This document shows, piece after piece, positions 7,276-43,508 of a stretch of 46,664 bases of DNA. Position 1 is the stretch's first letter. Each line of letters begins with the position of its first letter. This stretch comes from Thermoanaerobaculia bacterium. Lineage in GTDB: Bacteria; Acidobacteriota; Thermoanaerobaculia; Thermoanaerobaculales; Sulfomarinibacteraceae. Position numbers and translations under genes: made by a program. The DNA lies in NCBI GenBank assembly GCA_027067575.1, contig JAMOVQ010000068.1, positions 1 through 46,664 of the forward strand, in the 5' to 3' direction. The notes under the pieces are model-generated. The model saw only the letters and a list, made by a program, of their open reading frames with translations. It was not told the origin of the DNA and ran no database searches.

Positions 7276-8937
7276 CTACTCTATTATCGCGACGGATAGC
7301 TCTTCGGCGAGCTTCCTCATCTTCTCGTTCAGCCGTTCTCTTGCGGACTCCTGTGCGTCGTAGGGTTTGACCGATCGGCCCACATGGGCTCTGACGTCTG
7401 CCTGGTAACGATTCAGCAGCTCCCCAAGGCTCACAGAGCCGTGGCCGACCTGACGGCGGGCGGTGAGCAGTTTGCTGAAGAGACCCTGTCGAACGAAATT
7501 GCCGGTAGCCTCGACTTCACCGACCCAGAGAAGGTGAGCATCCTCCACCGACAAGCCGATATTCGGCTTTTCGATAGCGGTGTTGAGGAGGGTTTCCAAG
7601 CCAGGGCTTGCGAAGGACATGTCGAGCACTACGAATACGGGGACTACCCGGGTAACGGTACTCGCGAGCTTAGGATCATGTCGGAACAACCGCTCGACGG
7701 CTCGCATGAGCTGGTTGTCCTTGATGATCTTCGCATCCATTGATTTTCGGATTTGCAATTCATCACCTGCCCACTTCACAGTGTCCTCCATGATGTTGGC
7801 TTTCGCCTCCATCGCTACGAGCACACCGTCTTCCATCCAGAAGAAATCTGGTAGGCCCTTTCCCTCATCGTCACCACGCCGAACATTCCCCGCAGCGAGC
7901 CGTTTGAAAAAGTCAGCGAGGTATTGTTCAAAAATCCCACCAAACGCCCGGATGAGAGCGGTACCGCCTCCGCCTTCCCTCACGGCCAGCCAGAACAGCC
8001 CATTCGTGGCCGCCATGAGGACCAGCGCGGGGTCGAAACACCATACCTTCGCCTTGTCGAGCCGGATGAAAGGCCGACGGAGAAACGGAAGGATACTGAC
8101 ATCATCAACCCCACGGGTCGACAATGCCTCTCGAATTTCCGCCCAGGTGCCTGAGTAAAGGCCAATAACCCGCTCCATTGCAGCTTCACCCGGATGATTC
8201 GCGGACAAGGCCGAAAAATTGACCACCCCTCGTGACCAGTGTGGCTTTGGGATGGCACCTGTTTCCCGGACCTCCGGATCGAGCGCGGCAAGAAAATGAT
8301 GGTACAGCGTAAAGAGGAAGACCAGCACCTCCATAAACCGAACGCCAAACCTTGCTGTGAGCCGGGATTCTAGTTCCTGGTATGCAGCTGGCAATCGCTC
8401 AGCGAATAGTTCGAATGTCCTCGGCAAATGAGAAAAGGCATCCGGTCGCTGTGCCATGGAAAACGCCCTTAACACTTCAGCGATCCCCATTCTCTCCAGG
8501 GCGCTCGCTCTTGAGTACGACACGAGATCGTTGACCATCAGTTGTGCCCTGACCAACCGGTCCATGTCCTCGTACGTCGCCTCTCCAGGAGGGGGCGCTG
8601 GGTTCGCCACCATATGAGCAGCCACAAGGTTCGCCATCCTGTGCGGATCCGTAAGCGTCCATGACTTTTCCCGGTAGGCCCTCCGATGTTTGAGCAACTC
8701 CAGTATTCTGCCGCTCAACGCATTGGAAGAGTAGTTGGAGAGAAACCAATGCTGAAATCTCAGGAAGGCCTCGATTCCGGGATGCAGCGCGTCGCCATAG
8801 GTCAATCGGTGGCAGTAGTTGGAGGCGTATTTCTGCAACGATTCCAAACTCACGCCAGCAAGGAGTTTGTGGCATTCGTCCCAGCTTGCCTCTTGTCTGA
8901 AGAGATCCCTGTGGCTAAGTATGGCGAAGGTTTCCAT
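7276..8937 (-). CDS. Uncharacterised protein with PD-(D/E)xK nuclease-like signature at the end of the Type I RM operon
   Basis: A 553-residue soluble protein of no family I recognise. Residues 1-300 are helical. The C-terminal half holds FEQYLADFFKR (E337), then GLPDFFWMEDGVLVAMEAK, giving D364, E377 and K379 in the order and spacing of the PD-(D/E)xK restriction-nuclease core: acidic residue in a helix, then a D-containing strand, then a strand with ExK. A helix with basic residues follows (KSMDAKIIKDNQLMR). The start lies 22 bp downstream of the hsdR stop in the same direction, so it is the last gene of the hsdMS-immA-PIN-hsdR operon. A DNA- or RNA-cleaving defence effector is the natural inference, but only the short motif supports it. 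Base composition matches the island, not the chromosome. Confidence 0.7.
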   Translation of the reverse strand: METFAILSHRDLFRQEASWDECHKLLAGVSLESLQKYASNYCHRLTYGDALHPGIEAFLRFQHWFLSNYSSNALSGRILELLKHRRAYREKSWTLTDPHRMANLVAAHMVANPAPPPGEATYEDMDRLVRAQLMVNDLVSYSRASALERMGIAEVLRAFSMAQRPDAFSHLPRTFELFAERLPAAYQELESRLTARFGVRFMEVLVFLFTLYHHFLAALDPEVRETGAIPKPHWSRGVVNFSALSANHPGEAAMERVIGLYSGTWAEIREALSTRGVDDVSILPFLRRPFIRLDKAKVWCFDPALVLMAATNGLFWLAVREGGGGTALIRAFGGIFEQYLADFFKRLAAGNVRRGDDEGKGLPDFFWMEDGVLVAMEAKANIMEDTVKWAGDELQIRKSMDAKIIKDNQLMRAVERLFRHDPKLASTVTRVVPVFVVLDMSFASPGLETLLNTAIEKPNIGLSVEDAHLLWVGEVEATGNFVRQGLFSKLLTARRQVGHGSVSLGELLNRYQADVRAHVGRSVKPYDAQESARERLNEKMRKLAEELSVAIIE

Positions 8938-8959: not shown

Positions 8960-11900
8960 TCATTCCAGAACCTCGATGAACTCGGCGATGACGTGGAGCT
9001 GGTCTTCGGGGTTGCCGGTAAGGGTGATGGGGTCGTAGTCGGGATTGAGGGGGTGGAGGGTGATCTCTTGGTGGCGGAAGGAGCCGTCAGGGGTGGCGGT
9101 CTTCTCGCTGGTGTAGCGTTTGACGGTGTAGCGCTGGTTGGTCTCGGGGTCGGTGGTGTCGCGGAGCTGGACGAGGACGATCTTGCCCTGGCGAGTGCCT
9201 TGGACGGGGGCGCGGAAGAGGCACCAGGAGCCGTCGGGGATCCTGGGTTCCATGGAATGGCCGACGACTTTGGCGACGAACATGCCGGGGCGGAGGTGGT
9301 GGGTGGTGTCGATCTGGACCCAGGACCAGTCGCCGTCCTCGATGGTCTGGGGGTCGCCGAAGGCGCCGGCAGCGGCTTCGAGGGGGACGAGGGGGAGACA
9401 CTTTGTGTACCGATCCTCCGGGGCCGGATTCTCCACGAGGCGAAGGACAGATGGATGTGTTTCGCCCTCCTGGCTCCGCAACCGCCGATACGCTTCGGAT
9501 GCCATCCAGGCGCTGACGACCAGCTGGAACGCCTGATCGTTCATGTATCGTACGAAGATCTCCTCGTTCTGGTCCATCCGCTCCACGAAGAGCCTTTCCA
9601 ACAAGTTCTTGAATACCAGTTCGAACTTGTCTTCTGGGTTCACGGCCGCGGCCTGTCGAAGGCCATCATCACCTACTGCCGCTTCTACGATCTGGTCGAA
9701 GAAGAGCTGGTCGGCCTGACTGAAGTCCGTGCCGAAACGTTCGTTGACGACATCAATGAGTTGCGAGAGTGGCACTTCCTCTTCATGGCTGGATCCCGAG
9801 CCAACCTCGGTTGGACCGTCCAACGGCCGTGCCTTACCCTCCTGGAGAGAGATCGAGCCCTCACTGATTTTCTGGAGACGGTAATACTCGAGTCGCACCT
9901 CATCGTCGAATTGGTAGGCCGGCCCGATCGAACGCCGTGGCAGTTTCGCCGCGAGGTGACGCAGAAAAACATAGAGGCGCTCCAAGTCCGAGTCCTGGTA
10001 AGGAATGACCTGACTGAGAAAGCTGTAGAGGTTTCGAAACGCCTGCACCTTACCGCGCCAGAGCTCGGCCTCGGCCTCTTCCTCATTCTGCAGGGCTATG
10101 AACCGCGAAACCGCGGGGTCGAGTGCTGCGTTCATCGTTTGGTGGTCGCGTACACTCTGACGCTGCTTCGGCTCGAAGTACACCGCACAAAAGCGCTCCA
10201 CCTCTTCATCGAGGTAGATCCCGGACGCGTCCAGCTCGGCCTTGATCGCATACATCCGGGCGGGGTCCACTTCCTGCCCCATCTCCACGCCCTCGTAGTA
10301 CCCCTTGAACGCGTCGTGAATCTCCTCGCGGTCGTTCACGAAATCGAGAACGAAGGTATCCTCCTTGAGCGGGTGCGTGCGGTTCAGACGCGAGAGCGTT
10401 TGGACCGCCTGGAGACCGGCGAGTCGCTTGTCCACATACATGGTGTGCAGAAGAGGCTGGTCGAAACCTGTCTGGTATTTCTCGGCGACGAGCAAAACCT
10501 GGTACTCTTGAGTTGCAAATTTTTCGGGAAGCTCCTTTTCGCGGATCCCGCAGTTCATCTGCTGCTCGGTGTACTCGATATTCGGCAGCTTGTCGTCCCG
10601 CACCGTTCCGGAAAATGCAACCAGCGTCTTGATCGGGTAGCCCTTCGCCTGGATGTAACGGTCAAAGCTCTGTTTGTACCGAACGGCCTCCAGCCGCGAA
10701 CCGGTCACGACCATCGCCTTGGCACGCCCGCCGATCTTGTGCCGCGTGAAGGCCTGGAAGTGCTCGATCATCACTTCGGTCTTCTGGGCGATGTTGTGCG
10801 GATGTAGCCGCATGAACCGTGCGAGTGCACGCGCCGCTTTCTTGCGCTTGACGTTCGGGTCGTCTTCGCGTGCCTTGAGAAGCCTGTAATAGGTTGCATA
10901 GGTCGTGTAATTCTTCAGCACGTCGAGGATGAAGCCCTCCTCGATGGCCTGGCGCATCGTGTAGCGATGCACCGGCTCGCCATTCCGGCCGAATACGGCC
11001 AGGGTCTTGTGCTTGGGCGTCGCCGTGAAGGCAAAGAAGCTCAGGTTCGCCTGCCGACCCCGTTTCGCCATGCTCCGGAACAGCTCTTCAAGGTCCGGGC
11101 GGCCCTCCTCGGCCGCACGCCTTTGGGCCTCTTTTCGAAATTCTTCGCCGCCGAGAACCTCCTTGAGATCAGTTGCCGTCTCACCACCCTGCGAGCTGTG
11201 CGCTTCGTCGATGATCACCGCACAACGCCGCGTGGGGAGCACACCGTTGCCGGGCTCGCCGCGCTCTTCAGCCATCTTGAGAAGCTGCCGGGAAACGAAC
11301 GGGAACTTCTGCAGCGTGGTGATGATGATCGGGACGGCGTTTTCCAGGGCCTCCGCGAGCTGCCTCGAGCTTTCCTCGATCTTCTGGACCACGCCCCGCT
11401 TGTGCTCGAATTGGTAGATCGTGTCTTGGAGTTGCTGGTCGAGCACGATCCGGTCGGTCACGACGATCACGCTGTCGAAGACGCGTTCGTTGGAAGTATC
11501 GTGCAACGATGCCAGACGGTGCGCGAGCCATCCGATCGTGTTGCTTTTGCCGCTGCCCGCTGAATGCTCAACCAAATAGTTGTGCCCGATGCCCTCGGTG
11601 CGGGCGGCGTTCACCAGCCAACGTACCGCATCGAGCTGGTGATATCGGGGGAAGATCATCGTCTCGACCTTGACCTTCCGGCCATGGTCGTCGCGCTTTT
11701 CCTCGATCTGCAGGTGAACGAAGCGCGCGAGCAGATCGAGCAGGCTGTCACGCTCGAGCACTTCCTCCCACAGGTAGGCCGTGCGGTAGCTGCGGCCGGC
11801 CGGATCCGGGGGGTTACCCGCGCCACCGTCGCAACCCTTGTCGAACGGCAGAAAGTGGGTCGCGCTCCCGGCGAGGCGTGTGGTCATGCGCACGCACTCG

Positions 11901-12484
11901 GTGTCAAGGGCAAAGTGCACGAGCGTGCGGCGTTTGAACTCGAAGATCGGCTCACGAGGGTCGCGGTCCCGCCGGTACTGGCGAATCGCGTCCGCGACGG
12001 TCTGACCAGTCAGCGGGTTCTTGAGTTCCATCGTGGCCACAGGGACGCCGTTGAGGCTCAACGTGACGTCCAGGGACTTCTCCGATCGCGGGGAATAATG
12101 AAGCTGCCGCGTGATGCCGACGCGGTTCGCCGCGTAGCGGACCTCGAGCTCTGGATTGAGCTCGTGGGCCGCCTTGAAGAAGGCCACCCTCAGCGTGCGC
12201 CCGTAACACTTGAAACCGTGACGCAACGTCGCGAGCGAGCCGTGGACGTCCATCCACTTGCACAGGTCGGTCAGTACCTGCTCTCCCGTACGATCCCCGT
12301 GCAGCGCTTCGAGCTTCGACCACTCCTTCGGCTGGGTTTCACGGATGAACTCGATGACCATCTCGGGGAAGATGGCACGCTCGCGGTCGAAGCCCTCGCC
12401 GGGAACCGACACGTAACCGTTGGCGAGCAGGTGTGTCTCGATGACCGTCTCGAAGGCGGCTTCAGAATGGCGATCCGAGGTCAT
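8960..12484 (-). CDS. hsdR: Type I restriction enzyme R subunit (HsdR) with C-terminal S24/LexA-like peptidase domain
   Basis: 1174 residues from the ATG at 12484, which overlaps the stop of the PIN gene by 4 bp (ATGA); an in-frame TTG at 12499 is less likely. Domains in order: N-terminal nuclease (DVTLSLNGVPVATMELKN, PD-(D/E)xK type), then a superfamily 2 motor with SAGSGKS (P-loop), VIIDEAHSSQ, FFAFTATPKHK, EKYQTGFDQPLLHTMYVDK and QTLSRLNR. The R subunit translocates DNA and cuts it when assembled with HsdM and HsdS. Unusually, the last about 170 residues form a signal-peptidase-like S24 domain: LEAAAGAFG (possible Ala1039-Gly1040 self-cleavage site), GHSMEPRIPDG (Ser1077) and YTVKRY (Lys1122). 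The Ser-Lys dyad and upstream Ala-Gly match LexA/UmuD in order and approximate spacing. Confidence 0.93.
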   Translation of the reverse strand: MTSDRHSEAAFETVIETHLLANGYVSVPGEGFDRERAIFPEMVIEFIRETQPKEWSKLEALHGDRTGEQVLTDLCKWMDVHGSLATLRHGFKCYGRTLRVAFFKAAHELNPELEVRYAANRVGITRQLHYSPRSEKSLDVTLSLNGVPVATMELKNPLTGQTVADAIRQYRRDRDPREPIFEFKRRTLVHFALDTECVRMTTRLAGSATHFLPFDKGCDGGAGNPPDPAGRSYRTAYLWEEVLERDSLLDLLARFVHLQIEEKRDDHGRKVKVETMIFPRYHQLDAVRWLVNAARTEGIGHNYLVEHSAGSGKSNTIGWLAHRLASLHDTSNERVFDSVIVVTDRIVLDQQLQDTIYQFEHKRGVVQKIEESSRQLAEALENAVPIIITTLQKFPFVSRQLLKMAEERGEPGNGVLPTRRCAVIIDEAHSSQGGETATDLKEVLGGEEFRKEAQRRAAEEGRPDLEELFRSMAKRGRQANLSFFAFTATPKHKTLAVFGRNGEPVHRYTMRQAIEEGFILDVLKNYTTYATYYRLLKAREDDPNVKRKKAARALARFMRLHPHNIAQKTEVMIEHFQAFTRHKIGGRAKAMVVTGSRLEAVRYKQSFDRYIQAKGYPIKTLVAFSGTVRDDKLPNIEYTEQQMNCGIREKELPEKFATQEYQVLLVAEKYQTGFDQPLLHTMYVDKRLAGLQAVQTLSRLNRTHPLKEDTFVLDFVNDREEIHDAFKGYYEGVEMGQEVDPARMYAIKAELDASGIYLDEEVERFCAVYFEPKQRQSVRDHQTMNAALDPAVSRFIALQNEEEAEAELWRGKVQAFRNLYSFLSQVIPYQDSDLERLYVFLRHLAAKLPRRSIGPAYQFDDEVRLEYYRLQKISEGSISLQEGKARPLDGPTEVGSGSSHEEEVPLSQLIDVVNERFGTDFSQADQLFFDQIVEAAVGDDGLRQAAAVNPEDKFELVFKNLLERLFVERMDQNEEIFVRYMNDQAFQLVVSAWMASEAYRRLRSQEGETHPSVLRLVENPAPEDRYTKCLPLVPLEAAAGAFGDPQTIEDGDWSWVQIDTTHHLRPGMFVAKVVGHSMEPRIPDGSWCLFRAPVQGTRQGKIVLVQLRDTTDPETNQRYTVKRYTSEKTATPDGSFRHQEITLHPLNPDYDPITLTGNPEDQLHVIAEFIEVLE

Positions 12485-13005
12485 GCTCCGTGTTTCCAAT
12501 TGAACTGGATTCCAAGGTGCCTCAGCATCGAGTATGTGTTCTCGTACGCCACTCCGAATTGATTACAGACATCGGGTAGTTTGATTTCTCTCTTGGAGTC
12601 TGGAGCTGCCTGTTCATTTGTGACAACAGTCATCCCATGAACCCGTGCGTAGGCAACGAGCCAGCCGTCTGCACCTGTTGCGAACTTCGCCTTCGCATAA
12701 TCAAAATATCCCGGGTGACGCTGAATCCACAACATGATGTCCCCGTAGACGTTGGTCACTGTCTCCGTATCCACTTCGAGAAAAAAGGTCTTTGGCAACG
12801 TATCCCTGACCCAGACAACAAGGTCTTCGGTCTTGCGGCCAGCGAGCAACTCCCCACGGACCCTATCCACGCTGTACACGCACCCGCGCTTGTGGTGATG
12901 AATCAGGCTTGCCCAGAATCCCGGGCAAATATCGAATGCATAATAGAGGTTCTTTGCAGCAATGAAGACGTCCGCATCCACCAGATAAGTCGTTTCACCA
13001 CTCAC
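12481..13005 (-). CDS. DUF4411-type PIN-domain protein, probable toxin
   Basis: A 174-residue protein with GTG start overlapping the stop of the upstream protease gene (GTGA). The PIN-fold acidic residues are in place: LVDADVFI (D10, D12), VRGELLAG (E52) and FATGADGWLVAYA (D113), with VVTNEQ after. PIN proteins are metal-dependent ribonucleases, often toxins. The N-terminal YLVDADVFIAAKNLYY is what I recall of the DUF4411 group, commonly encoded next to an XRE/ImmA-type gene as here. Together they look like a toxin-antitoxin-like or regulated-effector pair placed between hsdS and hsdR. Whether it cleaves RNA in response to phage or to failed modification is not shown by the sequence. Confidence 0.8.
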   Translation of the reverse strand: MSGETTYLVDADVFIAAKNLYYAFDICPGFWASLIHHHKRGCVYSVDRVRGELLAGRKTEDLVVWVRDTLPKTFFLEVDTETVTNVYGDIMLWIQRHPGYFDYAKAKFATGADGWLVAYARVHGMTVVTNEQAAPDSKREIKLPDVCNQFGVAYENTYSMLRHLGIQFNWKHGA

Positions 13006-14159
13006 GGCAAGTTGAATCCCAGGCGCCGGCCATACTCCTGAAAGGCGCCGCCGCGTAGTCCCGTCAGGTCATACGCTTCCTTGAACCCCAAGCGGCCCTC
13101 CAGGGCGGCGCGCATGACATGGATCGCGAAGAGCTCGCCGACTCGCGTGTTCTGGTTCTTGTAGAAATCACCGCCACCTTTGCCTTTCATACGAACCCGT
13201 TCGTGCTTGGTGTAGACATCGTAGAACTCGAAGAAAGCCTCTCGGTCTACCAAACGTAGGTCCATAGCTCGACGGCCGGCTACGATCGGGCTGACCTTGA
13301 ACATCCGAGCTATCACCTCGAATGGCTTGGACGAGTGGCATACCTCGCCCCAACGTGCTCTCAATTCCCGTTCTGGAATCAGGAACTCGGCCGCCGCCCG
13401 GTCACAGAAACTCTCCACATCCCCTCCCGCGGGAGTAAGAAACTCAAACCCAGAGAGTCCTTCGCCCTTTTGACCGAGCCAGATGTGGGCGAGTTCGTGG
13501 GCTAGCGTAAACATCTGGGCGGATTTCGCATCAGCACCATTGACAAAGATCAGTGGTGCGTAGGAGTCACATAGGGCGAACCCTCGAAACTCCCGCACAT
13601 CGAGTTTTCTGTGCGTGTTGTTCCCGACAACCCCGTTGATGACGGCCATGACGCCAAGATTCTCAATTGTCCGGCGCAGCTCACTCACGGCCTCCTGCCA
13701 GGTGCGGACCTTGGCTGCCCATCCTTCCTCAAATCCCACAGCTCGCCGCATCTCCTGACCAACTGCGTCGGGATTATCTTTCAACCCTGCACTGCCAACG
13801 AAGTCGAAAGGCCCGGCCCCAAACTCGAGCCGTTCCTCCCGCAACCATGCCTGGCGCTGTTGCATGGCGTAGATCGTATCGAGAAGGTCGGGGCTGGGGC
13901 GGTCACGGTACTCTGGCGCGACGGTGCGAAAATCTGGAATCGGCACATCTTCGGTAGGCGGCTCAGGAAGGAAGAGATACCCTATCGGTGTATTTGTAGC
14001 TTTCGCGAAATCTTCCAGCTGTTTGAGGGTCGGCGAGAGTTCCCCGCTGAGCCAGCTCGGCAGTTTCGGTAGCTTCTTGCGAAGCAGCTCCGGCGTTGTG
14101 GCGCTACGATCCAGCGCCCACAGAAGGAGCTTGGGTCGAACGGATACACGGGTTGTCAT
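13002..14159 (-). CDS. XRE-like N-terminus with ImmA/IrrE metallo-endopeptidase
   Basis: A 385-residue protein. Residues 1-65 form a helical DNA-binding-like region (ELSPTLKQLEDFAKATNTPIGYLFLPEPP, the XRE-like tail typical of this group). Residues about 190-300 are the ImmA/IrrE zinc protease: MFTLAHELAHIWLG gives H221, E222 and H225, and FCDRAAAEFLIP supplies the third ligand region. ImmA cleaves a phage or ICE repressor and IrrE acts in the DNA-damage response, so this protein may sense damage and cleave a repressor or partner. It overlaps the PIN gene by 4 bp and starts inside the stop of the truncated ATPase remnant (ATGA), with GGAGG upstream (plus-strand 14165-14170 region). The neighbouring PIN protein is its most likely partner. 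Confidence 0.85.
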   Translation of the reverse strand: MTTRVSVRPKLLLWALDRSATTPELLRKKLPKLPSWLSGELSPTLKQLEDFAKATNTPIGYLFLPEPPTEDVPIPDFRTVAPEYRDRPSPDLLDTIYAMQQRQAWLREERLEFGAGPFDFVGSAGLKDNPDAVGQEMRRAVGFEEGWAAKVRTWQEAVSELRRTIENLGVMAVINGVVGNNTHRKLDVREFRGFALCDSYAPLIFVNGADAKSAQMFTLAHELAHIWLGQKGEGLSGFEFLTPAGGDVESFCDRAAAEFLIPERELRARWGEVCHSSKPFEVIARMFKVSPIVAGRRAMDLRLVDREAFFEFYDVYTKHERVRMKGKGGGDFYKNQNTRVGELFAIHVMRAALEGRLGFKEAYDLTGLRGGAFQEYGRRLGFNLP

Positions 14160-14287
14160 GGTGCCCTCCGCCCAATGGCGATACTAACACCGTTGACGCC
14201 GACAGTGAGGTTGAGACCCGGCCGGAAGTGGAAGTCGGCTGCTGAGATGGCGTGCAGGTTGGCAACCTTGAGCCCGGTAACGATCAT
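14156..14287 (-). pseudogene. Truncated start of an AAA/SMC-like ATPase gene, cut inside the P-loop
   Basis: A 43-codon frame whose ATG overlaps the hsdS stop (ATGATC) and whose TGA overlaps the ATG of the ImmA gene. Residues 1-34 read MIVTGLKVANLHAI, then DFHFRPGLNLTVGVNGV. This is the beta1-beta2 and P-loop start of RecF/SMC/OLD-type AAA ATPases (consensus ...GLNLLVGxNGxGKS). After GVNGV, where GKS/T should follow, the sequence switches to SIAIGRRAP and stops. The tail GGGCGGAGGGCACC looks like the original ribosome-binding region of the ImmA gene. The simplest reading is an internal deletion that removed nearly all of an ATPase gene once placed between hsdS and the protease. A short functional peptide cannot be excluded. 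Confidence 0.72.
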
Positions 14288-15546
14288 GCCGTCCCCTCCA
14301 CGTCGATTTGTCCGGTCACGGCCGCGGCGATGAGGGCCTCGCGGCGTTCCTTGAGGAGGGCGATAGTGCGCTCTGCAGCTGACGTTACCGCATCGATCTT
14401 AGCCGCCTCGGAGATTACCCGTTCGACGATAGCACGCTGTTCATCAAGCGGCGGCACGGGAAGCCATACGTCAAAAAAGGCTTCGGGATACAGGCGTAGC
14501 CGCGATGACCATACGCCCTTTGAGAAGCGGGTAACTTCTTGGGCGAAAACCGGCAGCCGCACTAGGGCATCCACGAAATTGGGCTCAAGTCGCCCCAACG
14601 GCTCATACACGTTGTACGCGGGGCTCACGATGCCGCTCAATGGTGCGACCCCCATCGCTCCCATCCACGCCCACAACGTATTGATGACGAGGTCACCCTT
14701 CAGACAGATCTTGTAACCCTCCTTCGTTTCCGCCTCGAACATATGAACGTCCTTCTCTGACCTGGGAGTCACACCAGTGATGTGGGAAACCGTAAGAAGT
14801 TCTTCCTCGCCGGTATCGGAACGTTCGTCGCGCTCTCGAAAAAGCCAGCGGGCACGTTCGGTCTCCCAATGCGCCGGAATCTTCCCGAGCCACGGGATGC
14901 CGGAGTCGCGGAGGGGGACGTTGGGGTCGAGGCCGCGGGTGACGGCGCGGGTGATGAGCGCCCGGCGCTTCTCTGCCAGCAGCTCGAGCAGCCGCATTTT
15001 CACCGCGATCAACGCATCGATCCGGGCCGTTTCCCGGTCAAGGTAGTCGGCGATGGCGCGTTGCTGGGGGAGGGGAGGGACGGGTACGACGTAATCACGA
15101 ACAAAGTTCTCCGGTACCCGCTGTTGGCCCGCCGCTCCCGTCATCCATGCCTCGCCGAGTCGCCGAAACCGTGGATCGACCGTCACGTAATAGAGAAACC
15201 TACCGTCAAGATCAGGGCCTGGCGTCAGGACGTAAAGCTCGGTTGTACCAAACCCGATTCCGTTCGGTACACCTCGTATCAGAGCGCCTTTTCCGTTCTC
15301 AAAACAGGGCGTTATCTTCGCAATCACAACGTCGCCCTCAAAGAACATCGAGTAACCCGTCCGGACGTCCTCGATGGGCCGAGTCCTCGACAGATCGAGC
15401 TGTCCCTGCTCCCCGATAGCTTCCATCGGTAGGAACAACACTTCAGAAGAGCCCGAGAGCAGATCCCCTTCCTCCGAAGAGCGTGCCCTCGAAGTCAGAA
15501 ACCGGAGCCGCTTCTTCGGCCATTGCGCGGTTCGGAGCAGGCTCAC
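14284..15546 (-). CDS. hsdS: Type I restriction-modification specificity subunit (HsdS)
   Basis: A 420-residue protein with GTG start overlapping the hsdM stop. It has the usual two-fold layout: target recognition domain 1 (about residues 1-145), a conserved helical region with PLPQQRAIADYLDRETARID and LLELLAEKRRALITRAV, target recognition domain 2 (about 220-365) introduced by IPWLGKIPAHWE, and a second conserved region with PPLDEQRAIVERVISEA and LLKERREALIAAAV. HsdS sets the bipartite DNA target for both methylation and cleavage. No truncation or internal repeat recombination is visible. The stop overlaps the truncated ATPase remnant by 4 bp. Confidence 0.93.
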   Translation of the reverse strand: MSLLRTAQWPKKRLRFLTSRARSSEEGDLLSGSSEVLFLPMEAIGEQGQLDLSRTRPIEDVRTGYSMFFEGDVVIAKITPCFENGKGALIRGVPNGIGFGTTELYVLTPGPDLDGRFLYYVTVDPRFRRLGEAWMTGAAGQQRVPENFVRDYVVPVPPLPQQRAIADYLDRETARIDALIAVKMRLLELLAEKRRALITRAVTRGLDPNVPLRDSGIPWLGKIPAHWETERARWLFRERDERSDTGEEELLTVSHITGVTPRSEKDVHMFEAETKEGYKICLKGDLVINTLWAWMGAMGVAPLSGIVSPAYNVYEPLGRLEPNFVDALVRLPVFAQEVTRFSKGVWSSRLRLYPEAFFDVWLPVPPLDEQRAIVERVISEAAKIDAVTSAAERTIALLKERREALIAAAVTGQIDVEGTA

Positions 15547-17537
15547 TCCGTCACCTCCCGCAGCAATCGCAAGATTTCCTCCTCCGCCTTCTTCAGGTCG
15601 GCGTCGATCTCCTCCAGCGGCCGCGGCGGCGTGTACGTGTAGAAGTGGCGGTTGAAGTTGACCTCGTAGCCGATCCTGTCCTTGCTCCGGTCCATCCAGG
15701 CATCGGGCACGTGGGGGAGAACCTCGCGCTCGAAGTAGGCTTTGATGTCGTCGGTGAGCGGTACGTTCTCGAAGTCGCGCAACCTGGGGTCTGGCTCGAA
15801 GCCGTCGCTCCGTCCTGCCTTTCTCACCGGTTCGGCCTTGGGATCGGTCCGTGTGAAAACGTCACGGAAGCGCTTCTGCTCGGTCTTCTTCCACTTCGAC
15901 TTGCGTTCATGCAGCAGATCCTGGATGCGCTCCCACACGGCGTTCCAGTCATACTGCGGATCGCGGCCGAGCACCTCGTCGATGGCCTGGATATCGTCGA
16001 GTAGGTACGGGTAGGCGTCGAGGAAGCGGGCTTTGTCTTCTGTGCTCATCTGGTAGCGGAGCCGCAGGGGCCGTTCGACGGTGACGCGGGTGTAGCCGAA
16101 ATCGGCGTTGTCAAAGATCTTGGAGCGCTCGCCGTCCTCGAAGCGGCCGTAGAGCTGGACGATCTCGGCGATCTGCGCCGCGGTGATATGACGGCGCTTG
16201 TCGCCCAGGCTCCGCTTACTCTCCTCGCTGCCGCCGGGGGCCCACAGATCGCGCGCGTCGAGGAGCTGGATCTTGCCCTTGCGGCGCTTCTCCTTGCGGT
16301 TGGTGACGATCCAGATGTAGGTGCCGATGCCGGTGTTGTAAAACATCTGTTCCGGCAGAGCGATGATCGCTTCGAGCCAATCGTTCTCGATGATCCACCG
16401 GCGGATGTTGCTCTCGCCCGACCCGGCACCGCCGGTGAAGAGCGGCGACCCGGAGAAAACGATCGCAAGACGAGAACCGTGCTTGCGCTCGGCTGGCCGC
16501 ACCGGCTCGAACTTGGAGATCATGTGCTGTAGAAAGAGCAGGGATCCGTCGTTCACACGTGGCAGGCCGGCGCCGAAGCGGCCGGCAAAGCCGAGTTTCT
16601 CGTGTTCCCGTTGAATTTCGTTCTTCTGTTTCTTCCAATCCACACCGAAAGGCGGGTTGGTCAGGAAGTAATCGAAGGTCTCTCCTTCGAACTGATCTTC
16701 CGTGAAGCTATCGCCAAAGCGGATGTTGTCTCCACCACCGTTGTGATCGACCTGTTTGATCAACATGTCCGAGGCTGCCGTGGCGAAGGCCCGCTTGTTG
16801 TAATCCTGACCGTATACGAAGAGCCGTGCGGCCGGGTGATGCTCGCGTAGGTAGTTCTGGGCCTCGGCCAGCATGCCACCGGTGCCGCAGGCCGGGTCAA
16901 GGAGCTTGCGCACCGTACCGGGCGTGGCGAGCAACTCATCGTCGTTCATGAACAGGATGCTGACCATCAACCGGATGACCTCGCGTGGTGTGAAGTGATC
17001 CCCTGCGGTCTCATTCGCCAGCTCGTTGAAACGGCGGATGAGGTTCTCGAAGATCAGTCCCATCTGCTCGTTTGGCACCCGGTCGGGGTGCAGGTCCACG
17101 TCGCAGAACTTCGAGACGACGAGATACAGGATGTTCGCCTCCTGCATCTTCTCGATTTCAGTCTCGAACTCGAAGTACTCGAAGATGCGCCGGACGTTGG
17201 CCGAGAAGCCCTCGATGTAGCTGACGAGGTGCTGGGCGATGTGGTCCGGATCGCCCTTCAGCTTCTCGAAATCGAGAGGCGAGTGGTTGTGAAAGCGTTG
17301 GCCCGCCGCACGATTCAGCTTGGCGTCCAGCGCCTCACCCTTGAGCTTCCCGTGCCAACGCTCGTGCTCCGCCAACACCTTGGCCTTGCTGGGCGCCAGC
17401 ACACAATCGAACCGACGAAGAACGGTCATGGGCAACATCACGCGCTCGTACTGCGGCGGCCGGTACGGCCCGCGCAGCAGGTCGGCGATCTGCCAGATCA
17501 GGTTCGAGAAGTAGTTATGGTCAGGCATGGCATGCAT
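15543..17537 (-). CDS. hsdM: Type I restriction-modification DNA methyltransferase subunit (HsdM)
   Basis: A 664-residue N6-adenine methyltransferase. The N-terminal helical domain (residues 1-170, YFSNLIWQIADLLRG) is followed by HFTPREVIRLM, the SAM-binding motif LLDPACGTGGML (DPACGTGG at 214-221) and the catalytic NPPFG (294-298). The C-terminal about 180 residues (from the region RRHITAAQIAEIVQLYG) form an extension beyond the usual 500-residue HsdM, as in the longer HsdM subclass. The first codon may be ATG 17537 or ATG 17528 (MPDHNYF); both lie inside the 3' end of the upstream remnant reading frame. It is the first intact gene of the defence operon and overlaps hsdS by 4 bp. Confidence 0.94.
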   Translation of the reverse strand: MHAMPDHNYFSNLIWQIADLLRGPYRPPQYERVMLPMTVLRRFDCVLAPSKAKVLAEHERWHGKLKGEALDAKLNRAAGQRFHNHSPLDFEKLKGDPDHIAQHLVSYIEGFSANVRRIFEYFEFETEIEKMQEANILYLVVSKFCDVDLHPDRVPNEQMGLIFENLIRRFNELANETAGDHFTPREVIRLMVSILFMNDDELLATPGTVRKLLDPACGTGGMLAEAQNYLREHHPAARLFVYGQDYNKRAFATAASDMLIKQVDHNGGGDNIRFGDSFTEDQFEGETFDYFLTNPPFGVDWKKQKNEIQREHEKLGFAGRFGAGLPRVNDGSLLFLQHMISKFEPVRPAERKHGSRLAIVFSGSPLFTGGAGSGESNIRRWIIENDWLEAIIALPEQMFYNTGIGTYIWIVTNRKEKRRKGKIQLLDARDLWAPGGSEESKRSLGDKRRHITAAQIAEIVQLYGRFEDGERSKIFDNADFGYTRVTVERPLRLRYQMSTEDKARFLDAYPYLLDDIQAIDEVLGRDPQYDWNAVWERIQDLLHERKSKWKKTEQKRFRDVFTRTDPKAEPVRKAGRSDGFEPDPRLRDFENVPLTDDIKAYFEREVLPHVPDAWMDRSKDRIGYEVNFNRHFYTYTPPRPLEEIDADLKKAEEEILRLLREVTE

Positions 17538-18451: not shown

Positions 18452-20035
18452 ATGGCGCGAGAGGTACTTCTGGGCGACGAGGCGGTGGGCCTCGGCGCCG
18501 TCCATGCGGGCTTGAGCGGCGTCTACGGCTATCCGGGGACGCCCTCCACCGAGATCTTCGAGTTCGTCGAGGGGATCGCGAAGCGGCGCGGCGACATCCA
18601 GGCGACGTGGAGCCCCAACGAGAAGGTCGCCTACGAGGAGGCGCTCGGCATGAGCTGGGCGGGCAAGCGCACGCTGGTCACCATGAAGCACGTGGGGCTC
18701 AACGTGGCGGCGGACGCGTTCATGAACTCGGCCATCACGGGCACCAACGGCGCCCTGGTGCTGGCCGTGGCGGACGATCCCGGGATGCACTCGTCCCAGA
18801 ACGAGCAGGACAGCCGGTACTTCGCGAAGTTCGCGCTGATCCCGTGCTTCGAGCCGCGCAACCAGCAGGAGTGCTACGACATGACCCGGGACGCGATGGA
18901 CCTCTCCGAGGAGCTGGGCGTGCCGGTGATGCTCCGGCTGGTCACCCGGATCGCCCACAGCCGGGCGGCGGTGGAGACGACGGATGCGCCGCGGGAGCAG
19001 AACCCGCTCAGGCCCTCCAAGGACATCCGCAAGTGGACGCTGCTGCCCTCCAACGCGCGGGTGCAGTACCGCTCGCTGACGGAGAAGCAGCCGGCCATCG
19101 CCGATCGCGCCGAGTCGAGCCCCTACAACGTGCTCGAGCTGCGCGGCAGGCGCGGTGTGATCGCCTGCGGCATCACGATGAACTACGTCCTGGAGAACCT
19201 GCCCGAAGACCACGACCTCTCGATCCTGGCCATCGGCCAGTACCCGGTCCCGCTCGGGCTCGTCCGCAAGCTCGCCGACCACGTGGACGAGATCCTCGTG
19301 GTGGAGGACGGGTACCCGTTCGTCGAGGAGGCGGTCCGGGGTCCGTTCGGCCTGCCCGGCGTCACGGTGAAGGGCCGGATGACCGGCGAGCTGCCCCGGA
19401 CGGGCGAGCTCAACCCGGACCTGGTGCGGAAGGCGTTGGGCCTGCCCGATCCGCCCCACGCCGAGGTGGAGCTGCCGTCCCTCGCGGGCCGGCCGCCGAC
19501 GCTCTGCCCGGGCTGCCCCCACACCGACACCTACCGGGCGATGAACGAGGCCCTGGAGAAGTACGACCGCCCGCAGGTGTTCTCGGACATCGGCTGTTAC
19601 ACTCTCGGCGCGCTGCCGCCGCTGGAGGCGATCCACAGCTGCGTGGACATGGGCGCCTCCATCGGGATGGCCGTGGGTGCCGCCCACGCCGGGTACCGGC
19701 CCGCGGTCTCGGTGATCGGTGACTCGACCTTCGCCCACAGCGGGATCACCGGGCTGCTCTCGGCGGTCAACGGCAACGTGCCGGTGACGGTGGTCATCCT
19801 GGACAACGACACCGTGGCCATGACGGGCACCCAGGAGTCCCAGGCCACGGCGGAGCGGCTCGACCGGATCGTGCTGGGGCTCGGGATCGACCCGGAGCAC
19901 TTCCGGATCATCAACCCGGTGCCGAAGGAGCACGAGACCAACGTCCGGGTGTTCGCCGAGGAGCTGGCGCACGAGGGGCCGAGCGTCATCGTGGCCCGCC
20001 GCCCGTGCATCGAGAAGATCAAGCGGCACAAGTAG
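18452..20035 (+). CDS. iorA: Indolepyruvate:ferredoxin oxidoreductase alpha subunit lacking the C-terminal ferredoxin domain
   Basis: 527 residues from ATG 18452 with GGGGG upstream. It oxidatively decarboxylates aryl-pyruvates to aryl-acetyl-CoA using thiamine diphosphate, passing electrons to ferredoxin. Visible features: GVYGYPGTPSTEIFEFV (N-terminal pyrimidine-binding half), ATWSPNEKVAYEEALGMSWAG, then the thiamine half with LCPGCPHTDTYRAM, SDIGCYTLG, and the GDSTFAHSG ... LDNDTVAMTGTQ metal-diphosphate site. Typical IorA proteins run to 600-plus residues and end in two 4Fe-4S clusters. This one ends at RRPCIEKIKRHK, so that domain is absent. The stop codon is immediately followed by a good GGAGG for iorB, so a frameshift is unlikely. 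A separate ferredoxin must accept the electrons. First gene of an operon with iorB and an NDP-forming acyl-CoA synthetase. Confidence 0.93.
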   Translation: MAREVLLGDEAVGLGAVHAGLSGVYGYPGTPSTEIFEFVEGIAKRRGDIQATWSPNEKVAYEEALGMSWAGKRTLVTMKHVGLNVAADAFMNSAITGTNGALVLAVADDPGMHSSQNEQDSRYFAKFALIPCFEPRNQQECYDMTRDAMDLSEELGVPVMLRLVTRIAHSRAAVETTDAPREQNPLRPSKDIRKWTLLPSNARVQYRSLTEKQPAIADRAESSPYNVLELRGRRGVIACGITMNYVLENLPEDHDLSILAIGQYPVPLGLVRKLADHVDEILVVEDGYPFVEEAVRGPFGLPGVTVKGRMTGELPRTGELNPDLVRKALGLPDPPHAEVELPSLAGRPPTLCPGCPHTDTYRAMNEALEKYDRPQVFSDIGCYTLGALPPLEAIHSCVDMGASIGMAVGAAHAGYRPAVSVIGDSTFAHSGITGLLSAVNGNVPVTVVILDNDTVAMTGTQESQATAERLDRIVLGLGIDPEHFRIINPVPKEHETNVRVFAEELAHEGPSVIVARRPCIEKIKRHK

Positions 20036-20045
20036 GAGGAAGGCC

Positions 20046-20816
20046 ATGGAGAAGAACCTCGTTCTCGCGGGCGTGGGCGGCCAGGGGATCCTGTCCATCG
20101 CCTTCGTCATCGACAACGCCGCCCTGGAGGCCGGCTTCCACTTCAAGCAGGCGGAGGTCCACGGCATGTCCCAGCGGGGCGGCGCCGTGCAGTCCAACCT
20201 GCGGTACGCGGACCACCCGATCCACTCGGACCTGATCCCCGTGGGGAAGGTGGACATGGTGCTGTCGGTGGAGCCGCTGGAGGCGCTGCGGTACGCCGGG
20301 AGCCTCTCCCCCGAGGGGTGGATCGTGTCCAGCGTGACCCCGTACGTCAACATCCCGGACTACCCGCCCATGGAGGAGGTCCTGGCCAGCCTGACGGCGT
20401 TCCCTCACACGGTCCTCGTGGACACGGGCGCCGTGGCGAAGGCCGCGGGCAACCTCCGGGCGCAGAACATGGTGGCCGTGGGCGCCGCCGCGCCGCTGCT
20501 GGACTTCACCGACGAGCAGCTCCTGAAGTACGTGCGGAAGCTGTTCGCCCGGAAGGGCGAGAAGATCGTCGCCGTCAACGAGCGGGCGTACCGGTTCGGC
20601 AAGGCGGCGGGGCTGTTCTACCGCGGCCTGATCGAGGCGGGGCTGCCCGCGCGGGACGCGCTGACGGTGTCGTCCCGGATGGACCCGGCCACGGTGGAGC
20701 CGGAGCGCGCCGCCGACTGGGCGAGGCTGGCCTCGGACGCCGCGGCGCTCGAGGCCATCGCGGGCCAGGATGGGCTGCTGGACTGCCGCGAGGCCGCCGT
20801 CCCCGCCGCAGGCTGA
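20046..20816 (+). CDS. iorB: Indolepyruvate:ferredoxin oxidoreductase beta subunit
   Basis: A 256-residue member of the pyruvate-ferredoxin-oxidoreductase gamma family. MEKNLVLAGVGGQGILSIA is the signature start, followed by AEVHGMSQRGGAVQSNLRY and the PVGKVDMVLSVEPLEALR segment. It forms the CoA-facing partner of IorA. The gene begins 10 bp after iorA with GGAGGA spaced correctly. The C-terminal about 60 residues (from SSRMDPATVEPERAADWAR) exceed the minimal domain and are alpha-helical. No iron-sulfur motif is present, so neither subunit here supplies the missing ferredoxin clusters. Confidence 0.93.
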   Translation: MEKNLVLAGVGGQGILSIAFVIDNAALEAGFHFKQAEVHGMSQRGGAVQSNLRYADHPIHSDLIPVGKVDMVLSVEPLEALRYAGSLSPEGWIVSSVTPYVNIPDYPPMEEVLASLTAFPHTVLVDTGAVAKAAGNLRAQNMVAVGAAAPLLDFTDEQLLKYVRKLFARKGEKIVAVNERAYRFGKAAGLFYRGLIEAGLPARDALTVSSRMDPATVEPERAADWARLASDAAALEAIAGQDGLLDCREAAVPAAG

Positions 20817-20876
20817 GGCGGCGTCCTCCGCACGACGATCACCCGCCGGCCCCGGTGGCCGGCGGTGGGAGGTGAC

Positions 20877-23246
20877 ATGGTCGAGACCGCCGCGATCCGT
20901 GAGATCCTGGAGCGCGCCGCCGCCGACGGGCGGTGGAGCCTCTTCGAGCACGAGTGCTACGACCTGCTGGCCGCCACGGGCGCCGAGGCCGCGCCCCGCT
21001 ACCGGCTGATCCCGCCGGAGGACCGGCCCGGGCCGGCCGACTTGGCCGCCATCCCCGGCGAGAAGGTCGTGCTCAAGGTGGTCTCGCCCGACATCACCCA
21101 CAAGACCGAGGCCCGGGGCGTCCGGATCGTGGCGAAGGAGATCGGCGCGGTGGAGGCCGCGTTCGAGCTGATGCTGCGCGAGGTGCCCGAGGCGTACGCG
21201 GCGTACCTGGAGGGCCACCCGGGGCACCGCCCCGAGGCGCTCGAGGGGCTGGCGGGCACGGCGCTGGAGGCCAGGCTGCGGGAGCGGCTCCGCGGGATCC
21301 TGCTGTGCGAGTTCCGGCAGGCCGACGCCCAGGGGTTCGCCACGGAGCTGTTCGTGGGGATCCGCAACACGGCGGAGTTCGGGCCGATCATCTCGGCGGG
21401 GCTCGGCGGGGTGGAGATGGAGATTCTCGCGCGCTCGACGAAGCCGGGCGCCGCCGTGGCCATCTCCCCCACGGGGCTCGTGGACGGGAGGGAGTTCTTC
21501 GAGCTGTTCCGGCGGACGCTGTCGTACGAGCGGCTCTCCGGCGCCATGCGCGGCAGCCGCCGGCTCGTCACCGACGAGACGCTGATCGAGTGCTTCCAGG
21601 CGTTCATCGACACGGCCAACGCGTTCTCCACCGTGACGCCGGACGCGCCGTTCCACATCCAGGAGCTGGAGGTCAACCCGTTCCTCGTGTCGGGCGGCCA
21701 CATCGCGCCGGTGGACGGCGTCTGCTCGTTCTCCGGACCGGCGGCGGTCCGTCCGCCCCGGCCCGTGGCCAAGATCGCCAACCTGCTCGAGCCGCGGTCC
21801 GCGGCGGTGATCGGCGTGTCGGCGAAGGGGATGAACATGGGCCGGATCATCCTCAACAACATCGTCCGGGCCGGGTTCGACCGGGACGCCGTGTGGGCGA
21901 TCCGCCCCGACACGGAGTCGATCGACGGGATCCCGTGCGTGGGCTCCATCGCCGAGCTGCCGGTCAAGGTGGACCTGCTCGTGGTGGCCGTGGGCGCGGC
22001 CCAGGTCCCGGCGGTGCTCGACGAGCTGCTCGACCACGACCGGGCCAACGCGGTGATCCTGATCCCCGGCGGCCTGGGCGAGAAGGAGGGCAGCCAGGAG
22101 CTGGCCCGCCGGCTCAAGGCGCGGATCGAGGAGGCCCACACCCGGGGCGACGGCGGACCGGTGTTCATCGGCGGCAACTCCCTCGGCGTGATCTCCCACC
22201 CGGGCCGGTACGACACCATGTTCATCCCGGAGATCAAGCTGCCCAAGTCGCGGGGCGACCACGACCGGAACGTCTGCTTCCTCTCCCAGTCCGGCGCGTA
22301 CATCATCGCCAACCTCAGCCGGATGCCGTGGCTCGATCCGGCGTTCGCCCTCTCCATCGGGAACCAGATCGACCTGACCGCCGGCGACCTGCTCGGGTTC
22401 ATCAAGGACGACCCGCGGATCGACGTGTTCGCGGTCTACATGGAGGGGTTCCAGGCCGGGGACGGGCTGGCGTTCGCCCGGGCGGTCCGGGAGGCCGTGG
22501 CTGCGGGCAAGGACGTGGTGTTCTACAAGGCGGGCCGGACCTCGGCGGGGCGCTCCGCCACGGCCGGACACACGGCCAGCGTCGCCGGGGACTACGCCGT
22601 CTGCGAGGCGGCGCTGACCGAGGCCGGGGCGTTCGTGGCGTCGAGCTTCGACGAGTTCTCCGACCTGCTCCGGCTGTGCACCCGCCTCCGCGGCAAGACC
22701 GTGCGGGGCAACCGGCTCGCGGCGCTGTCCAACGCGGGGTTCGAGGCCGTGGGGATGGCCGACGCCATCGAGGGCGACGGGTTCCGGCTCGAGCTGGCGT
22801 CGTACTCTCCCGCCACGCGGGAGCGGCTGCAGGCGCTGCTGGCCGAGCACAGGCTGGACGGGCTCGTGGACGTCAAGAACCCGTTCGACATCACGCCCAT
22901 GGCGAACGACGCCGCGTACGCCGACCTGGTCGGGGCGCTGCTGGGCGACGATGCCGTGGACCTGGCCGTGGTGGGGATCGTCCCGCTGACGCCGGCGCTC
23001 GAGACGCTGCCGCCCTCGGACCGGTGGCCCGAGTCCGTGGAGCACGAGGAGTCCGTGGCGCGGCGGCTCCCGGCCGTGGCCGCGGGGTCCGACAAGCCCG
23101 TCGTGGTCGTGGTGGACTCCGGCGAGCTCTACGACCCGCTGGCGGAGACGCTGGAGGCCGGCGGGCTCCCCGTCTTCCGCGCCGCCGACCGCGCCGTCCG
23201 CGCGCTCCGAACCTGGAGCCGAACCCGTCTCACCCGCCGTCCCTGA
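20877..23246 (+). CDS. NDP-forming acyl-CoA synthetase, fused beta-alpha order
   Basis: 789 residues from ATG 20877, chosen for GGGAGG at good spacing over an in-frame GTG at 20865. It converts an acyl-CoA, ADP and phosphate to the acid, CoA and ATP. The N-terminal about 290 residues are an ATP-grasp domain (LKVVSPDITHKTEARGVRIV; LEVNPFLV). Then come a CoA-binding Rossmann domain (AVIGVSAKGMNMGRIILNN) and a succinyl-CoA-ligase-like region. KAGRTSAGRSATAGHTASVAG carries His565, the phosphorylated histidine (compare SHTGS in archaeal enzymes). The order ATP-grasp then CoA-binding is the reverse of the common alpha-beta fusion. Downstream of iorAB it would harvest energy from aryl-acetyl-CoA, as in fermentation of aromatic amino acids in Pyrococcus-like archaea. 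Confidence 0.9.
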   Translation: MVETAAIREILERAAADGRWSLFEHECYDLLAATGAEAAPRYRLIPPEDRPGPADLAAIPGEKVVLKVVSPDITHKTEARGVRIVAKEIGAVEAAFELMLREVPEAYAAYLEGHPGHRPEALEGLAGTALEARLRERLRGILLCEFRQADAQGFATELFVGIRNTAEFGPIISAGLGGVEMEILARSTKPGAAVAISPTGLVDGREFFELFRRTLSYERLSGAMRGSRRLVTDETLIECFQAFIDTANAFSTVTPDAPFHIQELEVNPFLVSGGHIAPVDGVCSFSGPAAVRPPRPVAKIANLLEPRSAAVIGVSAKGMNMGRIILNNIVRAGFDRDAVWAIRPDTESIDGIPCVGSIAELPVKVDLLVVAVGAAQVPAVLDELLDHDRANAVILIPGGLGEKEGSQELARRLKARIEEAHTRGDGGPVFIGGNSLGVISHPGRYDTMFIPEIKLPKSRGDHDRNVCFLSQSGAYIIANLSRMPWLDPAFALSIGNQIDLTAGDLLGFIKDDPRIDVFAVYMEGFQAGDGLAFARAVREAVAAGKDVVFYKAGRTSAGRSATAGHTASVAGDYAVCEAALTEAGAFVASSFDEFSDLLRLCTRLRGKTVRGNRLAALSNAGFEAVGMADAIEGDGFRLELASYSPATRERLQALLAEHRLDGLVDVKNPFDITPMANDAAYADLVGALLGDDAVDLAVVGIVPLTPALETLPPSDRWPESVEHEESVARRLPAVAAGSDKPVVVVVDSGELYDPLAETLEAGGLPVFRAADRAVRALRTWSRTRLTRRP

Positions 23247-43489: not shown

Positions 43490-43508
43490 CGTTCCTCCAG
43501 TCGAGCCC

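What the first reader, a model, noticed from the sequence alone, without database searches (positions are those of the whole stretch)
18452..23246. Indolepyruvate oxidoreductase without its ferredoxin domain, next to an acyl-CoA synthetase with swapped domain order
IorA stops where two 4Fe-4S clusters normally follow, and the stop is clean with a proper ribosome-binding site for iorB. The synthetase has ATP-grasp first, then CoA-binding, the reverse of the usual fusion. The three-gene operon would make ATP from aromatic 2-oxoacids, a route best known in archaea, and needs a separate electron acceptor.
Basis: partly seen in the sequence, partly recalled or inferred. Interest (0 to 1): 0.5.

Follow-up and report, generated by a model that had tools for sequence, protein, structure and literature searches.

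The report
Single-cluster indolepyruvate oxidoreductase with CoA synthetase
An acidobacterium carries a slimmed-down enzyme that probably turns amino-acid-derived 2-oxoacids into CoA esters and a partner enzyme that probably turns those into ATP; the slimming is shared by a whole branch of relatives in many phyla, and in some of them one enzyme's small subunit is fused to the partner.

Summary
IorA (18452-20035) ends cleanly before the dicluster ferredoxin domain, iorB (20046-20816) has its own ribosome-binding site, and an NDP-forming acyl-CoA synthetase (ACD, 20877-23246) follows. No ferredoxin motif lies anywhere in the window. It is not a local truncation: all 80 nearest loci from other genomes lack the domain, and sampled Fd-less IorAs form one branch (SH-aLRT 100) apart from Fd-bearing ones. 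IorA keeps all four cysteines matching the proximal [4Fe-4S] ligands of the Sulfolobus single-cluster enzymes, so it should pass electrons straight to an external acceptor. The 'swapped' synthetase is not unprecedented: Nitrosopumilus 3-hydroxypropionyl-CoA synthetase (9y43) is co-linear with it. The ACD lies beside iorB in 37 of 80 loci and is fused to it in 20, mostly Planctomycetota; I found no report of that fusion in the searches made. Likely role: oxidative decarboxylation of aryl (or other) 2-oxoacids, then ATP from the acyl-CoA. Substrate and direction are unproven. This genome shows no prephenate dehydratase, so the reverse, arylacetate-to-amino-acid direction stays open. Verdict: a real, widespread variant of a known kind.

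The parts
18452..20035 (+). iorA-like gene, 527 aa: POR_N (TPP) + TPP_enzyme_C, no C-terminal ferredoxin domain
   Evidence: 71-80% identical in the 13 same-family genomes with full-length hits
19505..19516 (+). codons C352-P-G-C355, CxGC motif, predicted proximal [4Fe-4S] ligands
   Evidence: 95 of 96 aligned rows, the other a fragment; aligned to Sulfolobus OFOR beta CPGC
19595..19597 (+). codon C382 (IGC), predicted proximal cluster ligand
20006..20008 (+). codon C519 (ARRPC), predicted proximal cluster ligand, 8 residues before the end of IorA
20034..20043 (+). AGGAGGAAGG, Shine-Dalgarno-like sequence for iorB, overlapping the IorA stop
20046..20816 (+). iorB-like gene, 256 aa (POR domain), with a ~68-aa C-terminal extension beyond the family model
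   Evidence: NF005324 258.3 bits over cut-off 222; extension in 27 of 59 separate IorBs
20877..23246 (+). NDP-forming acyl-CoA synthetase, beta-alpha order (ATP-grasp_5, CoA_binding_2, Succ_CoA_lig), 789 aa
   Evidence: model pLDDT 84.8, best PDB match 9y43_B TM 0.76/0.84
21099..21101 (+). codon H75 (HKT), predicted phosphate-relay histidine of the ATP-grasp part
   Evidence: invariant in 13 aligned ACDs; aligned to HKT of 9y43
22569..22571 (+). codon H565 (GHTAS), predicted swinging-loop phosphohistidine
   Evidence: invariant in 13 aligned ACDs; loop 555-571 is a low-confidence stretch of the model

Best explanation
A two-subunit, single-cluster, indolepyruvate-oxidoreductase-like enzyme coupled to an NDP-forming acyl-CoA synthetase. 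IorA binds TPP, decarboxylates a 2-oxoacid (aryl-pyruvates are the best guess) and makes the acyl-CoA with IorB; electrons leave through the proximal [4Fe-4S] cluster directly to a soluble ferredoxin-type acceptor, which docks where the built-in ferredoxin domain sits in other IORs. The neighbouring ACD then takes the acyl-CoA with ADP and phosphate, by way of two phosphohistidines, to the free acid plus ATP. Shown by sequence: domain make-up, kept cluster ligands and catalytic histidines, gene linkage, fusion in relatives, one branch of Fd-less IorA. Inferred: aromatic substrate, ferredoxin as acceptor, oxidative direction, docking.
For: Domains. Four cluster cysteines kept in 95 of 96 IorA rows, the remaining row being a fragment, and aligned to the CxGC...GC...C of Sulfolobus OFOR beta 5b48_B. 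OFORs with one cluster and no internal Fd domain are known to reduce external ferredoxin (PMC5020499 passages). ACD beside iorB in 37 and fused to it in 20 of 80 loci; it still co-occurs in two same-family genomes where it lies on another contig (G009, G013). IorA and ACD distance matrices agree (r 0.86, 0 of 1000 permutations as high, 52 rows; species history not removed). The own genome encodes a PFOR and a 2-oxoacid:acceptor oxidoreductase alpha, both over their cut-offs, and a 69-aa dicluster ferredoxin-like ORF. One Prevotellaceae locus has an aminotransferase and a PaaK-like phenylacetate-CoA ligase directly after iorAB.
Against: TIGR03336 score is under its cut-off, so the IOR name is not warranted by the model. 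No substrate evidence for this lineage. PaaK-type ligases spend ATP (recalled), so the Prevotellaceae neighbourhood fits the reverse direction as well. Genomes with the short IorA tend to lack prephenate dehydratase (13 of 17 against 26 of 84 without any IorA in the phylum sample), which fits amino-acid scavengers but also fits biosynthesis by reversal. 14 of 80 loci with at least 3.5 kb downstream show no ACD nearby.
Confidence: 0.58

Rival explanations
1. The same proteins run in reverse: ACD spends ATP to activate arylacetates and IorAB reductively carboxylates them to aryl-pyruvates for Phe/Tyr synthesis.
For: No prephenate dehydratase (PF00800) and no TyrA (PF02153) match in the own genome, rated 100% complete, while all 14 control genomes match both; chorismate synthase is present and trpB/trpF lie in the window. 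Association of short IorA with missing PF00800 in the phylum sample (Fisher p 0.0007, kinship not corrected). PaaK-like ligase and aminotransferase after iorAB in L098. Reductive carboxylation of arylacetates in methanogens and rumen bacteria is recalled, not read.
Against: Of 17 same-family genomes with the short IorA, 5 also have prephenate dehydratase, so the unit is kept where it is not needed for that. Fd-bearing IorA also goes with missing PF00800 (21 of 33), so the link may only mark amino-acid scavengers. Simple auxotrophy explains the gap equally well.
Confidence: 0.2
2. The enzyme prefers non-aromatic 2-oxoacids (branched-chain, pyruvate or others) and the IOR name is inherited from homology only.
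For: TIGR03336 below cut-off; OFOR sequence motifs do not predict aromatic specificity and VOR-like enzymes can be aromatic-active (PMC13290082 passages).
Against: Nearest model by far is IOR alpha (524 bits; best model not named for indolepyruvate 56 bits), and iorB passes an IOR-beta equivalog cut-off; a PFOR and a 2-oxoacid oxidoreductase are already encoded elsewhere in the genome.
Confidence: 0.17
3. The ferredoxin domain exists as a separate dedicated subunit coded elsewhere that binds stably to IorA.
For: A 69-aa dicluster ferredoxin-like ORF on contig C91; such domains are separate delta subunits in PorD/KorD-type enzymes (recalled).
Against: Within 4 kb of iorA, frames with two CxxCxxCxxxC motifs or with one motif in under 150 aa turned up in 3 of 80 loci: two are 18-aa frames, the third (L074) a 276-aa frame 3.6 kb upstream on the other strand. 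Longer frames with one motif were not counted, and odd ferredoxins would be missed.
Confidence: 0.04
4. Artefact: frameshift, assembly error or decaying gene that cut the domain off.
For: None beyond the missing domain.
Against: Same end in 80 of 80 loci from other assemblies; one branch with support 100; strong codon bias, GC3 0.95-0.98.
Confidence: 0.01

Closest known systems
Indolepyruvate:ferredoxin oxidoreductase IorAB (TIGR03336 / TIGR03334, Pyrococcus type)
   Same: Two-subunit plan: alpha with POR_N and TPP domains, beta with the POR domain; proximal cluster ligands.
   Different: No C-terminal dicluster ferredoxin domain; alpha scores under the curated cut-off; forms a separate branch.
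Single-cluster OFORs (Sulfolobus StOFOR, Halobacterium, Aeropyrum, Hydrogenobacter KorAB; PMC5020499)
   Same: Only the proximal [4Fe-4S] cluster; external ferredoxin docks directly (here by analogy).
   Different: Those split the domains as III-I-II / VI; here they are I-II-VI / III. PMC5020499 says the Fd-less (ab)2 type was then seen only in aerobes of extreme habitats; the present branch includes Prevotellaceae and Cloacimonas titles, anaerobes as I recall.
3-hydroxypropionyl-CoA synthetase (ADP-forming), Nitrosopumilus, PDB 9y43
   Same: Co-linear beta-alpha ACD; TM 0.76/0.84; HKT histidine aligned.
   Different: 24% identity; a carbon-fixation enzyme for 3-hydroxypropionate; the window protein has about 32 extra residues in the ATP-grasp part.
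Pyrococcus furiosus peptide fermentation: IOR + NDP-dependent ACS (PMC3942289, passages read)
   Same: 2-oxoacid to acyl-CoA to acid + ATP logic.
   Different: There the ACS are heterotetramers of separate subunits (abstract); here the synthetase is one chain next to iorB, and fused to it in relatives.

Membership tests
Indolepyruvate:ferredoxin oxidoreductase (IOR) | alpha subunit with pyrimidine and pyrophosphate TPP domains | tested here: met
   PF01855 and PF02775 over cut-off; VIA-align rows: PFORs over 494-504 residues, Z about 30, other OFOR alpha chains over 1-335
Indolepyruvate:ferredoxin oxidoreductase (IOR) | C-terminal 2[4Fe-4S] ferredoxin domain on alpha | tested here: not met
   profile matched only to 537 of 595; no motif in the window
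Indolepyruvate:ferredoxin oxidoreductase (IOR) | alpha over the TIGR03336 equivalog cut-off | tested here: not met
   524.2 against 650.9 bits; partly because the model includes the missing domain
Indolepyruvate:ferredoxin oxidoreductase (IOR) | beta subunit of the IorB family | tested here: met
   NF005324 258.3 over 222 bits
Indolepyruvate:ferredoxin oxidoreductase (IOR) | oxidation of aryl-pyruvates with CoA and ferredoxin | not testable with these tools
   needs an enzyme assay
Single-cluster OFOR (Sulfolobus type) | four ligands of the proximal cluster, no internal Fd domain | tested here: met
Single-cluster OFOR (Sulfolobus type) | subunits composed as domains III-I-II and VI | tested here: not met
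   POR (domain III) is the separate small subunit, TPP_enzyme_C is on the large one
NDP-forming acyl-CoA synthetase (ACD) | ATP-grasp, CoA-binding and ligase domains | tested here: met
   PF13549, PF13380, PF13607 over cut-off; 9y43 match over 794 columns
NDP-forming acyl-CoA synthetase (ACD) | two relay histidines | tested here: met
   H75 and H565 invariant in 13 of 13, equivalents invariant in 11 of 11 aligned fused forms
NDP-forming acyl-CoA synthetase (ACD) | ADP-forming activity and substrate | not testable with these tools
   needs an enzyme assay; no named equivalog passes its cut-off

The most novel reading that the evidence does not exclude
The unit is one physical machine: a single-cluster IOR whose IorB hands the acyl-CoA straight to the ACD (covalently joined in Planctomycetota and a few others), so that a 2-oxoacid is converted to acid + ATP without free CoA ester; being reversible, it lets bacteria without prephenate dehydratase build Phe/Tyr from scavenged arylacetates for one ATP. 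It would also mean that the single-cluster OFOR plan arose a second time, in a different domain arrangement and partly in anaerobes.
Probability: 0.15. Interest if true: 0.65.

Novelty: new variant of a known kind. Interest (0 to 1): 0.4.

Why it matters
It brings substrate-level ATP formation from 2-oxoacids, best described in hyperthermophilic archaea, into many bacterial phyla with a compact gene set. The iorB-ACD fusion is strong genomic evidence that the two steps are coupled and gives a testable object for channelling. The simplified electron path makes ferredoxin docking on a one-cluster enzyme measurable, and the missing prephenate dehydratase makes the direction of the pathway a clean question.

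Tried and rejected
Ferredoxin domain in another frame or next door: rejected. Local truncation: rejected. Unique domain order: rejected by 9y43 and by NF045492/NF045494 co-linearity. Strict use for Phe biosynthesis: not supported, because 5 of 17 same-family genomes with the short IorA keep PF00800. Papers: ten searches gave, in their listings, no paper recognisably on the Fd-less IorA branch or the iorB-ACD fusion; only that open-access library was searched. Papers seen as passages only: PMC11494057, PMC3942289, PMC5020499, PMC13290082, PMC8542988, PMC6474303; the rest as listings. Foldseek on the IorA model (pLDDT 81.5, pTM 0.66) put two OFORs first and then many other TPP enzymes; VIA-align put OFORs on top, but the C-terminal part (about 336-527) is barely tested there and 337-402 is partly low-confidence. 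Neighbour genes of loci lacking the ACD gave no common theme: 20 proteins picked by hand out of 487 neighbour ORFs, whose automatic gene calls were often on the wrong strand in GC-rich loci.

Caveats on counts: the 80 loci are the best 80 of 268, so they lean to the Fd-less branch. L099 (archaeal title) and L102 (Fimbriimonadaceae title) are 90% identical over 13.5 kb, so at least one is mis-binned and spread to archaea is not shown by L099. In one search loci L001-L016 were left out as duplicates or not IorA. In one search, 126 rows were thinned to 63 and one fragment was dropped; the root is a midpoint, so loss versus gain of the domain is not decided. In one search genomes were classed by hand from the profile coordinates: 17 short (two of them, G063 and G073, also have another copy), 9 of one divergent genus (8 with PF00800) kept apart, 33 Fd-bearing, 6 unclear.
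Full report
What is there. Three genes on the + strand: iorA 18452-20035 (527 aa), iorB 20046-20816 (256 aa) and a synthetase 20877-23246 (789 aa). The IorA stop TAG overlaps AGGAGGAAGG, whose AGGAGG core lies 6 bases before the iorB ATG; the synthetase ATG follows GGAGGTGAC. Upstream, on the other strand, is a type I restriction-modification locus; downstream, on the other strand, a thioredoxin-domain protein, so the unit stands alone. Its GC3 (0.95-0.98) is the highest in the window. The genome is a 3.08-Mb assembly in 191 contigs, rated 100% complete. Its nearest named relatives by this gene are Acidobacteriota, among them Thermoanaerobaculia.

IorA. Pfam finds POR_N and TPP_enzyme_C. TIGR03336 matches 2-537 of 595 at 524.2 bits, under the cut-off of 650.9. 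Fd-bearing IorA exists in the same order: 12 of 12 loci L020-L031 have the CxxCxxCxxxC motif and 601-614 aa, and so do the 30 loci fetched as best TIGR03336 hits in the phylum (30 of 30, 575-612 aa). In the window no frame has the motif. In 80 of 80 loci from other genomes, the best 80 of 268, IorA ends without it. In a tree of 62 rows, built on the window IorA's columns only, the 41 Fd-less rows and the 21 Fd-bearing rows fall on two sides of one branch, SH-aLRT 100.

The cluster that remains. Among 96 aligned IorA rows, C352, C355, C382 and C519 are cysteine in 95, the remaining row being a fragment. A profile of 20 IorAs (18 Fd-less, 2 Fd-bearing) aligns these four to cysteines of the Sulfolobus OFOR beta chain 5b48_B, whose CxGC loop is described as a proximal-cluster ligand in PMC5020499 (passages). 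That paper also describes OFORs that have just this cluster, lack the internal ferredoxin domain and use an external ferredoxin. Domain grouping differs from Sulfolobus (I-II-VI / III here, III-I-II / VI there), so it works like that type and is not a member of it.

The synthetase. ATP-grasp_5, CoA_binding_2 and Succ_CoA_lig in that order. Both relay histidines (H75 in HKT, H565 in GHTAS) are invariant in 13 of 13 aligned relatives. The AlphaFold model (pLDDT 84.8, pTM 0.86) has its best PDB match in 9y43, Nitrosopumilus 3-hydroxypropionyl-CoA synthetase, over 794 alignment columns, TM 0.76/0.84. The beta-alpha order is therefore solved already. PMC11494057 (passages) calls shuffling of subdomains a definitive characteristic of the superfamily. 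No named equivalog passes its cut-off, so the substrate is open.

Linkage and fusion. Of 80 loci, 37 have a separate ACD on the same strand, 20 have iorB and ACD in one open frame, 1 has it on the other strand, 14 have none with at least 3.5 kb of downstream sequence, and 8 end too soon. By record title 16 of the 20 fused loci are Planctomycetota; the others bear deltaproteobacterial, methanogen, Fimbriimonadaceae and cyanobacterial titles, and the methanogen and Fimbriimonadaceae loci are 90% identical over 13.5 kb, so at least one is mis-binned. Eleven of the 20 fused proteins were aligned; both histidines are invariant. A separate IorB with a C-terminal extension like that of the window occurs in 27 of 59 cases; blastp matches of the window's IorB to the fused proteins end at its residues 192 to 252, so the extension resembles part of the linker in several of them. 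In the window's own family (20 genomes) 15 have both IorA and the ACD, 2 have IorA only (completeness 79 and 65), 3 have neither, none has the ACD only. In G009 and G013 the two lie on different contigs yet both are kept. Distances among IorAs and among ACDs agree (r 0.86, 52 rows), with species history not removed.

Electron acceptor. PF13237 finds 20 places in the own genome. Among ten stretches fetched are a PFOR (TIGR02176, 1631 bits over 911), a 2-oxoacid:acceptor oxidoreductase alpha (TIGR03710, 611 over 483), a NuoF-like protein with a C-terminal dicluster ferredoxin domain, and a 69-aa dicluster ferredoxin-like ORF. COX1 is present. A soluble ferredoxin pool is thus plausible; which protein serves IorA is not known.

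Direction and substrate. No prephenate dehydratase match in the own genome and no TyrA match, while all 14 controls match both; chorismate synthase is present and trpB/trpF are in this window. In the phylum sample of 149, PF00800 is missing in 13 of 17 short-IorA genomes, 21 of 33 Fd-bearing ones, 1 of 9 of a divergent genus, 4 of 6 unclear ones, and 26 of 84 without IorA. This fits amino-acid scavengers that burn aromatic amino acids, and also synthesis of them from arylacetates. Within the family, 5 of 17 genomes with the short IorA do have PF00800, so the unit is not merely a substitute. One Prevotellaceae locus (L098) has an aminotransferase and a PaaK-like ligase (TIGR02155 538.7 bits, cut-off 646.3) right after iorAB, the only direct hint at an aryl substrate, and one that could point either way.

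Judgement. Real, conserved and widespread; ordinary in chemistry, less ordinary in architecture. I rate it a new variant of a known kind. The fusion and the one-cluster IOR branch are the parts worth following; ten searches of the open-access library did not show them described.

Noticed in passing
42299-44123 (-): trpB (TIGR00263 592 bits, over cut-off) and trpF next to each other, so part of Trp synthesis is present although prephenate dehydratase and TyrA give no match in this genome.
   Followed up: partly
8966-17537 (-): Type I restriction-modification locus (HsdR with an S24-like end, HsdS, HsdM) with a DUF4411 gene and an IrrE-type M78 gene wedged in; lower GC3 than its surroundings, looks mobile.
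   Followed up: partly
7282-8937 (-): Weak GapS1-like antiphage hit (28 bits, cut-off 320) beside the restriction locus.
   Followed up: no
45159-46664 (+): First part of a YgfK-like putative selenate reductase subunit (456.7 bits over half the model), cut by the window end.
   Followed up: no
20816-20877: GC-rich inverted repeat (CCGCCGGCC...GGCCGGCGG) between iorB and the synthetase, without a T run; might tune expression of the third gene.
   Followed up: no
L053, L054, L065, L071, L078, L080, L086, L088, L090-L092, L094, L096, L099-L102, L104, L106, L109: iorB fused in frame to the ACD (about 1000 aa).
   Followed up: partly
G038 C242 and G041 C157: In another family of the class, an ACD about 40% identical lies within 2 kb of a TPP-domain hit of what looks like a different 2-oxoacid oxidoreductase, so the pairing may have arisen more than once.
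   Followed up: no
L099 and L102: Loci with a methanogen and a Fimbriimonadaceae title are 90% identical over 13.5 kb: a binning error in at least one.
   Followed up: yes
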